The translations under genes were made by a program, and so were the position numbers. Positions 23,376 to 54,851 of a DNA stretch of 55,033 nt are shown here, piece by piece. Positions within the stretch are counted from its first letter, which is position 1, and each line of letters opens with the position of its first letter. Below the pieces are notes generated by a model. The model saw nothing but the letters and a program-made list of their open reading frames with translations, had not been told where the DNA came from and searched no databases. This stretch comes from an uncultured Lachnospiraceae bacterium (GTDB lineage: Bacteria > Bacillota > Clostridia > Lachnospirales > Lachnospiraceae), in the NCBI GenBank assembly GCA_947626985.1, contig CANQUG010000018.1:1-55033 (forward strand), given 5' to 3'.

Positions 23376-23510
23376 AGTACAGCAGCATTCCCATATCGTC
23401 ATTTCATGAAACAGCTTCTCCTAAACAGCCGCTTCACCAAACAGCTGTACTTTTACACTGTCAGTTACTTTTTGCAGCCGAGGCAAAAACTGTGAGTGCT
23501 TCGATATACA

Positions 23511-23689
23511 GCTGTCAGGACTGTGCTTCCTGTCTGGCAGACCGTTCGGGCGCGGTTTTAGCGGAGACGAAATCCACCGCTTACGGAGACTTAGGCGCGA
23601 AGGCTCTTCCTGAGCGCCTTAGTCGTAGTTGGCGGTTAGTTCGGCGGAGTGTTGCGCCGTCAACAGACAGGAAGCACAGTCCTGGCAGC
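23511..23689 (+). repeat. Structured intergenic element, copy A of three
   Basis: The 179-base element is closed by a 26-bp helix (23511-23536 with 23664-23689, one G-U pair; it starts GCTGTCAGGACTG). Further helices are GGCGC (23549-23553) with GCGCC (23654-23658) and GACTTAGGCGC (23588-23598) with GCGCCTTAGTC (23614-23624, one mismatch). The unpaired GACGAAATCC and GAAGGCTCTTCCTGA segments are shared with the other copies. Short flanks CGATATACA and GTCCGT are also conserved. It lies between the binding-protein gene and the promoter at 23754; nothing else was recognised in the gap from 23376. Confidence 0.85.
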
Positions 23690-23753
23690 GTCCGTGCGGT
23701 TATGATACCGGGGAACAATCTGGGAAAAATGTCGGAAAACGGCGACTTAGACA

Positions 23754-23781
23754 TTGATTTCTGACTTTTTTGGTGTATAAT
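23754..23781 (+). promoter_or_regulatory. Putative promoter of the secreted acidic protein gene
   Basis: TTGATT (23754-23759) and TATAAT (23776-23781) are separated by 16 bp. The leader to the ATG at 23922 is about 135 bases. Confidence 0.6.
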
Positions 23782-23921
23782 AGGCTTGTAATTCAGGTAT
23801 CCTGTTGTACTTCCATGATGCACGAAGGATACCGCGATGTGCAGAACAATGCGCAGCTGAAAGAAAACCCCGGAAGGGGCAGCGAGATGTGCGAAAAACG
23901 TGCACAGATAAGGAGGAAAAA

Positions 23922-37950: not shown

Positions 37951-39009
37951 GTGAGAGCGGAAGTCGTGAGAATGACAGCGGATAAACCGGATATGGAGGC
38001 CCTTCGCCGGGGAGGAAAAATTCTCCGGGAGGGCGGTCTTGTGGCGTTTCCCACGGAGACGGTGTACGGACTGGGAGGAAACGCCCTGGATCCGGAAGCG
38101 TCCCGGAAGATTTACAGGGCCAAGGGACGTCCCTCGGATAATCCCCTTATTGTACATATTGCGGACAGGAAGGATCTGGATGAGATTGCCGCTTTCGTGC
38201 CGGAGAAGGCCCAGATTCTGGCGGAGAAATTCTGGCCGGGGCCTTTGACTATGATTTTTCCGAAAACAGGGAGGGTGCCTCTGGAGACTACCGGGGGACT
38301 GGACAGTGTGGCGGTTCGATTCCCCAGCGACCGGATTGCGCAGCTTCTCATCCGGGAAGGCGGAGGATTTATCGCCGCTCCCAGCGCGAATACCTCCGGA
38401 CGGCCCAGCCCAACCCGGTCGGAGCATGTGGAGGAGGACCTGGGGGACGCGGTGGATATGATCATCGACGGCGGACCGGTGGGAATCGGTCTGGAGTCCA
38501 CGATTGTGGACTTTACGGAGACGATTCCGGTGGTTCTGCGTCCGGGTTATATCTCCCTGGAAATGCTCCGGGAAACTCTGGGAGAGGTTCGGATGGACCG
38601 GGGACTTCTTATTACAGACAGCTCCGTGAGGCCGAAGGCGCCCGGTATGAAATACCGCCACTATGCGCCTAAGGCAGATCTGCTGATCGTGGAGGGCGAG
38701 CCGGAGGACGTGATTTCCGCCATCAATGGATACGCGCAGAAAGCCCAGGCTGAGGGAGAGACGGTGGGGATCATCGCCACGGACGAAACCTTCGGGAAAT
38801 ACCCTTACGGCGTAGTGCGGAGCATCGGAAGCAGAGCCCATGAGGAGACCATTGCCCGGCACCTTTACGATGTCCTGAGGGAGTTCGACAAATATCAGGT
38901 AAAGGCCATTTATTCAGAAGCATTTTATACTCCCAGAATAGGGCAGGCCATCATGAACCGGCTTCTGAAAGCAGCAGGCCACAGGATCATCCAGGTGACG
39001 GAACATTAA
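37951..39009 (+). CDS. tsaC: L-threonylcarbamoyladenylate synthase, Sua5 type
   Basis: This enzyme makes threonylcarbamoyl-AMP from threonine, bicarbonate and ATP, the first step in forming the t6A37 modification of ANN-decoding tRNAs. The YrdC domain shows GGLVAFPTETVYGLGGNALD, KGRPSDNPLIVHI and SAPSANTSGRPSPT; the linker and C-terminal Sua5 domain end with FYTPRIGQAIMNRLLKAAGH. At 352 residues it matches the two-domain Sua5 form. I use the GTG at 37951; ATG 37972 is a possible alternative since the ribosome site (GAGAGG) is weakly spaced. Confidence 0.92.
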   Translation: MRAEVVRMTADKPDMEALRRGGKILREGGLVAFPTETVYGLGGNALDPEASRKIYRAKGRPSDNPLIVHIADRKDLDEIAAFVPEKAQILAEKFWPGPLTMIFPKTGRVPLETTGGLDSVAVRFPSDRIAQLLIREGGGFIAAPSANTSGRPSPTRSEHVEEDLGDAVDMIIDGGPVGIGLESTIVDFTETIPVVLRPGYISLEMLRETLGEVRMDRGLLITDSSVRPKAPGMKYRHYAPKADLLIVEGEPEDVISAINGYAQKAQAEGETVGIIATDETFGKYPYGVVRSIGSRAHEETIARHLYDVLREFDKYQVKAIYSEAFYTPRIGQAIMNRLLKAAGHRIIQVTEH

Positions 39010-39106: not shown

Positions 39107-39286
39107 GCTGGCGAGGCTGCCCCTTCTGTCAGGCAGACCTTTCAGCCGCGGTTTTAGTGGAGACGAAATCCACCGCTTATGCAGACTTGGGCGCGAAGGC
39201 TCTTCCTGAGCGTCCTAGTCGGAGTTAGCGGTTAGTTCGGCGAAACGTTGCGGCGTCTGCATGACAGAAGGGGCAGCCTTGCCAGC
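39107..39286 (+). repeat. Structured intergenic element, copy B of three
   Basis: The 180-base element is closed by a 25-bp helix (39107-39131 with 39262-39286, one G-U pair; it starts GCTGGCGAGGCTG). Inside, GCAGAC pairs with GTCTGC, GCCGC (39145-39149) with GCGGC (39250-39254), and GACTTGGGCGC (39184-39194) with GCGTCCTAGTC (39210-39220). The stem sequences differ from copies A and C, but every change checked keeps pairing, while GAAATCCACCGCTTA and GCGAAGGCTCTTCCTGAGCG are unchanged. It lies between tsaC and rpiB; nothing else was seen in 39010-39420. Confidence 0.85.
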
Positions 39287-39420
39287 GTCCGTTCGCATGG
39301 TTCTCTCCGAATTGATTGGTCATAATGTCCGTCTGCAACGTCGAGCTACACGGACCTTTTAGTTGTATAATTGAAAATTTAGTTTATAGTTATATTTTAA
39401 AAACAGGGAGGAAATACAAT

Positions 39421-39858
39421 ATGATAGCTTTAGGATGTGATCACGGCGGTTATGAACTGATGCAGGAAGTAAAACAGTATCTGGACCAGAAGGGATATGA
39501 GTATGAGGATTTCGGCTGCCACAGCACGGAAGCCACGGATTATCCCATCTATGCGAAAAAAGTGGCCCGGGCAATTCTTTCCGGAAAATGCGACAAAGGA
39601 ATTCTGATCTGCGGAACAGGCATCGGCATTTCCATCACTGCCAATAAATTTAAAGGAATCCGCGCGGCTCTCTGTACTGATTGCTTCTGCGCGGAAGCCA
39701 CCAGACAGCACAATGACGCCAACGTTCTGGCCATGGGCGGAAGAGTGGTAGGTCCCGGCCTTGCCATCAAGATCGTGGAAACCTTCCTCACCACGCCTTT
39801 CTCCGGCGCGGAACGCCACTGCGCCCGCATCGCTCAGATGGAGCAGGATATTGACTGA
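39421..39858 (+). CDS. rpiB: Ribose-5-phosphate isomerase B (RpiB/LacAB family)
   Basis: The 145-residue protein has the RpiB motifs IALGCDHGGYEL, GYEYEDFGCHS, GILICGTGIGISI and RQHNDANVLAMGGRVVG, and interconverts ribulose-5-phosphate and ribose-5-phosphate. Cys in ICGTGIG is the catalytic base of the family. GGGAGG precedes ATG 39421; the longer frame from 39316 has no ribosome site and passes through AT-rich noncoding sequence. Confidence 0.9.
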   Translation: MIALGCDHGGYELMQEVKQYLDQKGYEYEDFGCHSTEATDYPIYAKKVARAILSGKCDKGILICGTGIGISITANKFKGIRAALCTDCFCAEATRQHNDANVLAMGGRVVGPGLAIKIVETFLTTPFSGAERHCARIAQMEQDID

Positions 39859-53383: not shown

Positions 53384-54367
53384 TTGTATGATTACGGACT
53401 CAGTATCCTGGAACAGTACGGGCTTACAGCCAAAACCTCTTCCCGCACCAGAGGGGCGCTGCTGTGCCGTACCGACCAGGGGGTTCTCATTGTGAAGGAG
53501 TTCCACGGTTCGGAGAAAAAACTGAAAAAACAGCAGGAGCTGCTGCTTGCCCTTTCCGAAAGCGGGTTTCATGTGGACAGTTTCCTGGAAAATCAGGAAG
53601 GCTCCCTCATCAGCTGCGACAGGGACGGAATTCCCTATACCCTGCAGCGATGGTTCGAGGGCCGCGAATGTGATACCAGATCCAGAGAAGACATTCTGAA
53701 AAGCGTCCGTTCTCTGGCCGGATTACATAAGGCTATGAAACTGGAGCCGACAGAGGACTATGCGGAGAAATCTCTGGAGGATGAGTTTGTCCGCCATAAT
53801 CAGGAACTGCGGAAGATCCGGAAGTTTATCCGGAAGAAAAGCCCCGCCTGCCCCTTTGAGAAGGATTTTCTCTCCAGTGTGGAGTGGTTTCTGGATCAGG
53901 GAGAAAAGGCTCTCTGCATGCTGAGGGAATCCTCCTATCACGAGCTCCGGCAGAGTTCCCTGGACAGAGGGCTGGTCTGCCACGGAGACTTTAATCAGCA
54001 CAATGTGTGGATGCTGAAAAACACCTTCGCCGTCACGAACTTCGACCACTGGGTATTTGATGTTCAGATGGCGGATCTCTATCATTTCATGCGAAAAATT
54101 CTGGAAAAGTACAGCTGGGATATTTCTCTGGCAAAAGAGATGCTGTACGCCTATCACAGGGAGCGCCCCATCACCGGGGAAGAATGGCAGAATCTGCGGG
54201 TCCGCTTCACCTATCCTGAAAAATACTGGAAGCTTTCCAATTATTATTACACCCACAATAAAGCTTGGATCTCGGAAAAAAATGCAGAAAAGCTGAAAAC
54301 CCTCATCGCCCGGAAGGAACTCTGGGAAACCTTCACCGCTGCCTGCTTTTCCGATTATCCCTTTTAA
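53384..54367 (+). CDS. CotS-like kinase-fold protein (aminoglycoside phosphotransferase superfamily)
   Basis: The 327-residue protein resembles CotS/YutH spore-coat-associated proteins with a protein-kinase-like/APH fold. It has GVLIVKEFHGSEKKLKKQQE (ATP-lysine region), ACLVCHGDFNQHNVW-like catalytic loop (exact sequence LVCHGDFNQHN, catalytic Asp) and the following VTNFDHWVFDVQMADLYHFM (metal-binding D region, where the first Asp is preceded by NF rather than the usual ID). CotS-type proteins occur in spore formers, which hints at sporulation ability. Start is TTG 53384 with GAGGGGG upstream; no in-frame ATG lies near. Confidence 0.82.
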   Translation: MYDYGLSILEQYGLTAKTSSRTRGALLCRTDQGVLIVKEFHGSEKKLKKQQELLLALSESGFHVDSFLENQEGSLISCDRDGIPYTLQRWFEGRECDTRSREDILKSVRSLAGLHKAMKLEPTEDYAEKSLEDEFVRHNQELRKIRKFIRKKSPACPFEKDFLSSVEWFLDQGEKALCMLRESSYHELRQSSLDRGLVCHGDFNQHNVWMLKNTFAVTNFDHWVFDVQMADLYHFMRKILEKYSWDISLAKEMLYAYHRERPITGEEWQNLRVRFTYPEKYWKLSNYYYTHNKAWISEKNAEKLKTLIARKELWETFTAACFSDYPF

Positions 54368-54672: not shown

Positions 54673-54851
54673 GCAGGCAGGACTGTGCTTCCTGTCTGGC
54701 AGACCGTTTGGGCGCGGTTTTAACGGAGGCGAAATCCACCGCTTACGGAGACTTAGGCGCGAAGGCTCTTCCTGAGCGCCTTAGCCGGAGTTAGCGGTTA
54801 GTTCGACGGAGTGTTGCGCCGTCAACAGACAGGAAGCACAGTCCTGCCTGC
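54673..54851 (+). repeat. Structured intergenic element, copy C of three
   Basis: The 179-base element has a perfect 26-bp closing helix (54673-54698 with 54826-54851; it starts GCAGGCAGGACTG) and is nearly identical to copy A. The outermost pairs differ from A (GCAGGCAGG versus GCTGTCAGG), with matching changes on the other arm. The remaining bases, 54852-55033, hold a small GGCAAA / TTTGCC hairpin and nothing else I can identify. Confidence 0.85.

What the first reader, a model, noticed from the sequence alone, without database searches (positions are those of the whole stretch)
23511..23689. A covarying ~180-nt structured element occurs three times: candidate new structured RNA or mobile repeat
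Copies at 23511-23689, 39107-39286 and 54673-54851 are in the same orientation, each between two plus-strand genes (copy C downstream neighbour lies outside). Each has a 25-26 bp closing helix. Copy B differs from A in this helix by substitutions and paired indels on both arms. In inner helices there are exact compensating changes: G23550-C23657 in A is C39146-G39253 in B, and A23593-T23619 in A is G39189-C39215 in B. Unpaired blocks GAAATCCACCGCTTA and GCGAAGGCTCTTCCTGAGCG are identical in all three. Conserved loops with covarying stems are expected for a functional RNA (or for a structured DNA substrate of a transposase). I know no described family with this pattern, though I could not search. 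Template-switch repair of palindromes could also keep arms matched, but it would not explain the conserved loops.
Basis: partly seen in the sequence, partly recalled or inferred. Interest (0 to 1): 0.85.

Follow-up and report, generated by a model that had tools for sequence, protein, structure and literature searches.

The report
Mobile hairpin repeat with structured head
A gut bacterium's genome carries about 33 copies of a roughly 180-letter mobile hairpin whose central fold is conserved in many related bacteria, which makes it a new kind of jumping element worth testing, though how it moves and what the fold does are not yet known.

Summary
The three ~180-nt copies are there, and the same genome holds 33 full or partial ones. 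The element is patchy but multicopy: 19 of 60 genomes of the genus (Blautia group), 28 of 348 of the family; in a phylum scan 2 of 398, both in that family (each count includes this genome). Rfam has no match.

It has two layers. A ~120-nt head covaries strongly (21 of 32 pairs change on both sides, 0/500 shuffles) and tolerates G-U more than A-C (104:34; 56:18 without the richest column of each). The outer arms are copy-specific, nearly perfect inverted repeats without such asymmetry (198:214), as expected if DNA-level copying keeps them matched.

It is mobile: copies in one relative carry 7-bp target duplications, and copy B splits sua5 and rpiB, which lie 5-130 nt apart in 29 of 29 relatives examined. 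Copies lie just upstream of promoters, oriented with them (42 of 177 versus 7-10 elsewhere); close pairs are head-to-head (35 of 38).

Verdict: an undescribed MITE-like element with a conserved folded head. Its mover, and whether the head acts as RNA or single-stranded DNA, are unknown.

The parts
23511..23689 (+). Copy A, whole hairpin element
   Evidence: one of 33 full or partial copies in the genome
23500..23512 (+). Copy A, conserved 5' end motif (TTCGATATACAGC), overlapping the start of the arm
   Evidence: alignment of own-genome copies
23511..23536 (+). Copy A, 5' arm (long inverted repeat)
   Evidence: fold; one search reports the arm matching its partner in reverse
23547..23666 (+). 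Copy A, conserved structured head (model R1 match, 137.9 bits; the model includes this copy)
23572..23641 (+). Copy A, P4 hairpin of the head with the AUCC/UAG internal loop at its base
23664..23689 (+). Copy A, 3' arm
23688..23694 (+). Copy A, conserved 3' end motif GCGTCCG
23754..23781 (+). sigma70-like promoter just downstream of copy A (TTGATT, 16 nt, TATAAT), oriented with the element
   Evidence: read; general association
39107..39286 (+). Copy B, inserted between sua5 (37951-39009) and rpiB (39421-39858)
39143..39262 (+). Copy B, structured head (R1 129.8 bits; the model includes this copy)
39366..39371 (+). TATAAT box between copy B and rpiB (no good -35 box seen)
   Evidence: read
54673..54851 (+). 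Copy C, whole hairpin element; its downstream neighbour lies beyond the contig end
54709..54828 (+). Copy C, structured head (R1 134.4 bits; this copy was not in the model)

Best explanation
A non-autonomous, MITE-like mobile element of Lachnospiraceae, built as [end motif]-[5' arm]-[~120-nt head]-[3' arm]-[end motif]. Shown: it inserts (7-bp target duplications in one relative, an occupied operon gap here), it is multicopy and patchy, and it lies more often than chance just upstream of promoters in the same orientation. Shown: the head is under constraint to fold on one strand. Inferred: the arms stay complementary mainly because replication copies one arm from the other (template switching), so they change quickly between copies yet match within a copy. 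Inferred: an enzyme acting in trans, probably a DDE-type transposase given the end repeats and fixed-length duplication in that relative, moves it. Inferred and least certain: the head acts as RNA when read through from an upstream gene, or as a folded single DNA strand.
For: Copies: 33 in the own genome; 19 of 60 genus genomes; 28 of 348 family genomes; 2 of 398 in the phylum scan, both in the family. Covariation in a structure-blind MAFFT alignment. G-U vs A-C at fixed P4 positions in 162 distinct heads 104:34, arms 198:214, Fisher p = 2e-8; without the richest column of each, 56:18, p = 1e-5; B. schinkii alone 12:0 vs arms 33:36, p = 8e-4. Arm identity within a copy 0.865-0.93 in the five most-sampled genomes, between copies 0.66-0.76, head between copies 0.87-0.95 (the within-copy figure is from local alignment, which flatters it). 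Target duplications in G059: flank identity 0.77 at exactly 7 bp vs 0.47 for random flank pairs, 3 of 8 perfect among the 8 of 15 copies with both ends located; ATGTCCT in L104 and AATAGAT in L202 read by eye. Over all copies, direct repeats of 9 bp or more in 4 of 186 vs 0.25 expected. sua5-rpiB gap 415 nt here, 5-130 nt in 29 of 29 other genomes examined. Promoters: 42 of 177 in the 3' flank on the + strand vs 7, 10 and 10 in the other three settings, 3.3% in shuffles.
Against: No autonomous partner was found: no transposase recognised by eye near the G059 end repeats in the 24 loci read. Core-less short hairpins in G059 keep the ends and sometimes the duplication, so the head may not be needed for insertion. 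Of the 104 G-U cells 48 lie in one column, and 16 of the 34 A-C cells in another; cells are not independent events. In the innermost 15 arm pairs G-U exceeds A-C (46:27 summed), and in the own genome a stricter count gave 14:2, so selection on pairing may reach into the inner arm. Of the 19 of 186 copies with direct repeats of 7 bp or more (4.9 expected), five in B. schinkii (AGGGGAC) fall in the element's own end sequence. No clear duplication was seen at the three window copies. 5' flanks hold promoters little more often than shuffles (10 of 177, 5.6% vs 3.3%), so independent transcription of the element is not supported.
Confidence: 0.7

Rival explanations
1. A cis-acting or small regulatory RNA of the host, spread by duplication, that controls the downstream gene.
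For: Strand-specific covariation in the head. Co-orientation with flanking co-directional genes, 26 sense vs 12 antisense, p = 0.03. Position upstream of genes.
Against: Downstream genes share no obvious pathway, judged by eye. The promoter lies after the element rather than before it. Distribution is patchy, with tens of copies or none in genomes of one genus. Target duplications and an empty site are present.
Confidence: 0.13
2. A structured single-stranded DNA substrate for a hairpin-reading recombinase (IS200/IS605 or REP-RAYT type, IS110, or integron attC-like).
For: Long imperfect hairpin with variable stems and conserved internal loops; one-strand bias. Three of 11 B. schinkii pair spacers read enclose small genes (NUDIX, InPase-like, SnoaL-like), a content recalled as typical of cassettes.
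Against: Among 33 genomes tested, Y1 transposase is absent in the carriers G000, G003, G006, G018, G028, G034, G045 and G059 (G003, G006 and G034 are 81-83% complete); IS110 absent in 5 of 16 carriers, G000 included. Target duplications are recalled not to be made by these enzymes. Close pairs are inverted, not head-to-tail as cassette arrays are recalled to be.
Confidence: 0.11
3. A bacterial SINE-like retroelement: the head is the RNA that a reverse transcriptase recognises.
For: One-strand (RNA-like) constraint on the head; longer direct repeats of 9-11 bp at a few copies (L225, L330, L097, L067).
Against: RVT_1 not found in multicopy carriers that are 97-99% complete: G393, G085, G289; also not in G003, G006, G030, G039 and G057, some of them incomplete. 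Fixed 7-bp duplications and terminal inverted repeats in G059 point to a DNA transposase.
Confidence: 0.03
4. Orphan guide-RNA scaffolds of TnpB, as happened with the RAGATH-18 RNAs.
For: An orphan structured RNA family did turn out to be TnpB guide RNA (PMC11061315, search listing only). One G161 copy lies about 0.75 kb from a TnpB-like ORF (L308; PF07282 hit at G161:C1:3472734-3472934).
Against: PF07282 not found in 6 of 16 carriers (G039, G045, G174, G192, G289, G393). No TnpB-like gene was recognised by eye in the 11 loci, mostly around single or few copies.
Confidence: 0.03

Closest known systems
Bacterial MITEs and small interspersed repeats (BOX, RUP and SPRITE of pneumococcus; Correia/NEMIS; ERIC)
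   Same: Short, multicopy, intergenic hairpins with inverted repeats; target duplications in one genome here (PMC3049150 abstract and section 6; PMC10969869 passages; NEMIS recalled).
   Different: A ~120-nt head conserved with compensatory changes, found in 28 of 333 family genera sampled; copy-specific arms; directional placement before promoters. BOX, RUP and SPRITE are enriched between convergent genes instead (PMC3049150 section 6).
Template-switch-maintained hairpins
   Same: Inverted arms kept matched by copying one arm from the other (PMC8794818 abstract and start of introduction; PMC8604942 search listing).
   Different: There the subject is RNA genes or coding repeats; here the process would act on dozens of mobile copies and contrasts with a head kept by strand-specific pairing.
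IStrons (group I intron plus insertion sequence)
   Same: A mobile DNA element carrying a structured RNA (PMC4227781, search listing).
   Different: No group I intron match, no gene seen in the copies, much smaller (IStron size recalled).
Integron attC sites
   Same: Long imperfect hairpins with variable stems and strand-specific folding (recalled).
   Different: Conserved attC end boxes were not looked for; target duplications are present here; close copies are inverted rather than in tandem.

Membership tests
MITE | Short, multicopy, no gene of its own | tested here: met
   33 copies in G000, at least 60 in G052; no conserved ORF noticed in the copies read, not tested formally
MITE | Terminal inverted repeats | tested here: met
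   Clear in G059; in other genomes the arms are inverted but the extreme ends are only weakly so
MITE | Target-site duplication | tested here: met
   7 bp in G059; a few longer ones elsewhere (4 of 186 at 9 bp or more vs 0.25 expected). Not clear in G000, where repeats blur the flanks
MITE | Ends shared with an autonomous insertion sequence | tested here: not met
   None recognised by eye in the 24 G059 end-repeat loci read for ORFs, of 52 sites; the partner may be lost or diverged
REP/RAYT (Y1 transposase) elements | RAYT or Y1 transposase in carrier genomes | tested here: not met
   PF01797 absent in G000, G045, G059 and other carriers
Retroelement (SINE-like) | Reverse transcriptase in carrier genomes | tested here: not met
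   PF00078 absent in G393, G085 and G289
TnpB guide RNA | TnpB in carrier genomes | tested here: not met
   PF07282 absent in 6 of 16 carriers, though one G161 copy lies near a TnpB-like ORF
IS110 bridge RNA | IS110 recombinase in carrier genomes | tested here: not met
   PF01548 absent in 5 of 16 carriers, including G000
Any Rfam family | Match to a curated covariance model | tested here: not met
   0 matches at gathering on the window, 4227 families; 0 at E up to 5 on 23400-23800
Integron attC | RYYYAAC/GTTRRRY boxes and an IntI integrase | not tested
   Boxes recalled; neither they nor IntI were searched for

The most novel reading that the evidence does not exclude
A new class of transposable element in which a conserved folded single strand (RNA or DNA) inside an otherwise unconstrained hairpin is the recognition device, directing insertion to the region just upstream of active promoters and in their orientation; inverted pairs of copies can then bracket and carry small genes.
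Probability: 0.2. Interest if true: 0.88.

Novelty: new variant of a known kind. Interest (0 to 1): 0.62.

Why it matters
It is an unlisted, widespread repeat of common gut bacteria that lands in operons and next to promoters, so it probably shapes gene expression, and it breaks assemblies (several contigs end inside it). It also separates two causes of compensatory change in one element: strand-specific structural constraint in the head, and strand-symmetric, DNA-level copying in the arms. That matters for anyone who infers RNA function from covariation.

Tried and rejected
Rfam on the window and on copy A: nothing. Plasmid and phage records: no match to copy A; one viral-contig scan with an exact pattern: none. 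Y1 transposase, reverse transcriptase, TnpB and IS110 as universal mobilisers: each is missing from several carriers. Autonomous IS sharing the G059 ends: none recognised. Genes in the 11 loci: housekeeping or unnamed, by eye. Common pathway of downstream genes: none apparent by eye. Promoter in the 5' flank: near background. My first G-U/A-C count for the head (52:4) was biased, because local alignment drops end mismatches; the fixed-position count (104:34) replaces it. In that count 48 G-U and 16 A-C cells lie in one column each, and its inner six pairs also hold 102 other mismatches, partly from heads with longer tips that fall out of register. Heads entered these counts only if at least 3 of 6 P4a pairs were Watson-Crick. 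My gene caller is crude (ORF length plus ribosome-binding motif), so the orientation counts are approximate. The pair count (35 of 38 head-to-head, 3 head-to-tail, 0 tail-to-tail, within about 1.3 kb) was made by hand from the listings and; the listings are capped, so it is a sample; a first count of 31 of 33 missed five pairs. Paper searches that found no description of this repeat, judged from their listings: (open-licence PubMed Central only; supplements, including those of PMC8040213, could not be read, so it may be one of that paper's candidates).

Full report
WHAT IS THERE. The three copies (23511-23689, 39107-39286, 54673-54851) are real and share one orientation. On the + strand they fold with z = -8.6, -10.5 and -7.6; copy A on the - strand with -6.7. 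BLAST in the own genome (4.08 Mb, 200 contigs) finds 33 full or partial copies at 79-100% identity; model R1 also finds 33. Several contigs end inside or at a copy (C2, C127, C153), as expected for a repeat.

ANATOMY. Reading along the + strand: a conserved 5' end motif (TTCGATAYACAGC), the 5' arm, a linear chain of short helices P2, P3 and P4 with conserved internal loops (ATCC opposite TAG; TACGGAGAC opposite GTCGTAGTT; tandem G-A at the tip), the 3' arm, and GCGTCCG. In some members from other genera the tip of P4 is replaced by long, unrelated hairpins while the loops below it stay. A structure-blind alignment of 36 heads pairs in 92.8% of cells against 82.4% after shuffling; 21 of 32 pairs change on both sides, 96 cells do so (23 expected), and no shuffle of 500 reached any measure; slid structures pair in 26-47%. 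One three-pair helix is weak (61%). Shuffling does not remove relatedness, so this is strong but not a formal R-scape test.

DISTRIBUTION. R1 finds the head in 19 of 60 genomes of the genus, with 1 to at least 60 copies, in 28 of 348 genomes of the family, sampled from 333 genera, and in 2 of 398 of a phylum sample, both of them in the family; each count includes the window's own genome. A pattern scan of named genomes returned 94 stretches; of the 80 listed, 49 are Blautia schinkii DSM 10518 and the rest MAGs. None in viral contigs by the same exact pattern, and no match to copy A in plasmids or phages. Weak matches are under-detected because large scans use strict filters.

TWO DIFFERENT FORCES. 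If a helix is kept as a folded + strand, a half-made change survives as G-U but not as A-C; if DNA copying keeps arms alike, the two are equally frequent. At fixed P4 positions of 162 distinct heads I count 104 G-U and 34 A-C, against 198 and 214 in the arms (Fisher p = 2e-8). One column supplies 48 of the G-U and another 16 of the A-C; without them it is 56:18, p = 1e-5. In B. schinkii the head has 12:0 and the arms 33:36. A stricter arm count gives 122:100 over all genomes, not different from parity. Against this, the own genome's arms give 14:2 in that count, and the innermost 15 arm pairs lean to G-U (46:27 summed), so pairing selection may reach into the inner arm. Arms match within a copy (0.865-0.93 in the five most-sampled genomes, local alignment) better than between copies of one genome (0.66-0.76), while heads stay 0.87-0.95 alike between copies. 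I infer template switching between arms, a mechanism described for hairpins (PMC8794818, abstract and start of introduction), as the main keeper of the arms.

MOBILITY. In G059 the arms end directly in host DNA as GATGTCGGGG...CCCCGACATC. Flank identity at exactly 7 bp is 0.77 against 0.47 for random flank pairs (some of them true pairs) and only 0.25-0.36 at 5, 6, 8 and 9 bp, close to the random level there; 3 of 8 copies with both ends located (of 15 held) are perfect. Over all genomes, direct repeats of 7 bp or more flank 19 of 186 copies (4.9 expected), but five of these are element-end sequence in B. schinkii; of 9 bp or more there are 4 (0.25 expected). Copy B lies between sua5 and rpiB (Pfam), which are 415 nt apart here but 5-130 nt apart in all 29 other genus genomes whose loci were examined (29 of the 49 other genomes with an rpiB match, of 59 searched), 25 of them 43 nt or less. 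The extra DNA is larger than the hairpin, so more than the 180-nt element was gained there.

PLACEMENT. A sigma70-like promoter occurs within 200 nt in the 3' flank on the + strand at 42 of 177 copies, against 7, 10 and 10 in the three other settings and 3.3% in shuffled flanks (p = 2e-11). Of 60 copies with clear neighbours, 38 lie between co-directional genes, 26 sense and 12 antisense (p = 0.03). Close pairs (within about 1.3 kb) are head-to-head, 5' ends facing, in 35 of 38, head-to-tail in 3 and never tail-to-tail (hand count; p = 3e-18 against one in four); outside B. schinkii 13 of 16 (p = 4e-6). Of 11 B. schinkii spacers read, three hold a small gene: NUDIX (E = 2e-9), an inorganic-pyrophosphatase-like and a SnoaL-like protein, the last two below Pfam's cut-offs. 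Whether the placement reflects targeting or selection is open.

WHO MOVES IT. No tested family tracks the element. Y1 transposase is absent from G000, G045 and G059 among others; reverse transcriptase from G393, G085 and G289; TnpB from 6 of 16 carriers; IS110 from 5 of 16. One G161 copy does lie about 0.75 kb from a TnpB-like ORF. A DDE-type transposase is inferred from the G059 ends and duplications only. G059 also holds short core-less hairpins with the same ends, some with duplications, which argues that the head is not strictly required there.

WHAT IS KNOWN. I found no description of this repeat in the listings of seven searches of open-licence papers. The large human-microbiome RNA survey (PMC8040213, term search and passages) does not name Blautia or Lachnospiraceae in its main text, but its tables were not readable. 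BOX, RUP and SPRITE of pneumococcus are the nearest in kind, but they favour the space between convergent genes (PMC3049150 section 6).

VERDICT. A new, MITE-like mobile element with an unusually conserved folded head. Structure and mobility are shown; arm homogenisation is well supported; the mover and the role of the head are inferred.

Noticed in passing
L209, L250, L273 (Blautia schinkii), between head-to-head pairs: Small complete genes (NUDIX, InPase-like, SnoaL-like) sit between inverted pairs of the element, as if carried.
   Followed up: partly
L005, L014, L016, L022, L025, L026, L028 flanks and others (own genome): Tandem arrays (units 9-103 bp) touch the ends of 16 of 27 own-genome copies, and some include the last bases of the element; arrays are also common elsewhere in these loci (1.3 per kb), so the excess is not proven.
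   Followed up: partly
G059:C11:149-215, C16:6193-6255, C104 (L202), C118 (L203), L192: Short core-less hairpins with the same end repeats and, in L202, a perfect AATAGAT duplication.
   Followed up: partly
window 23511, 39107, 54673: The three copies are spaced 15,596 and 15,566 bases apart; I know no reason and take it as chance.
   Followed up: no
window 53384-54367: The gene upstream of copy C is a weak match to the APH phosphotransferase family (E = 8.7e-7).
   Followed up: no
L312, L316, L317, L320, L324 (other genera): The tip of the head is replaced by long hairpins that differ between genera while the internal loops below are kept.
   Followed up: no
L308 (G161:C1, copy at 3474634): A TnpB-like ORF lies about 0.75 kb from one copy.
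   Followed up: no
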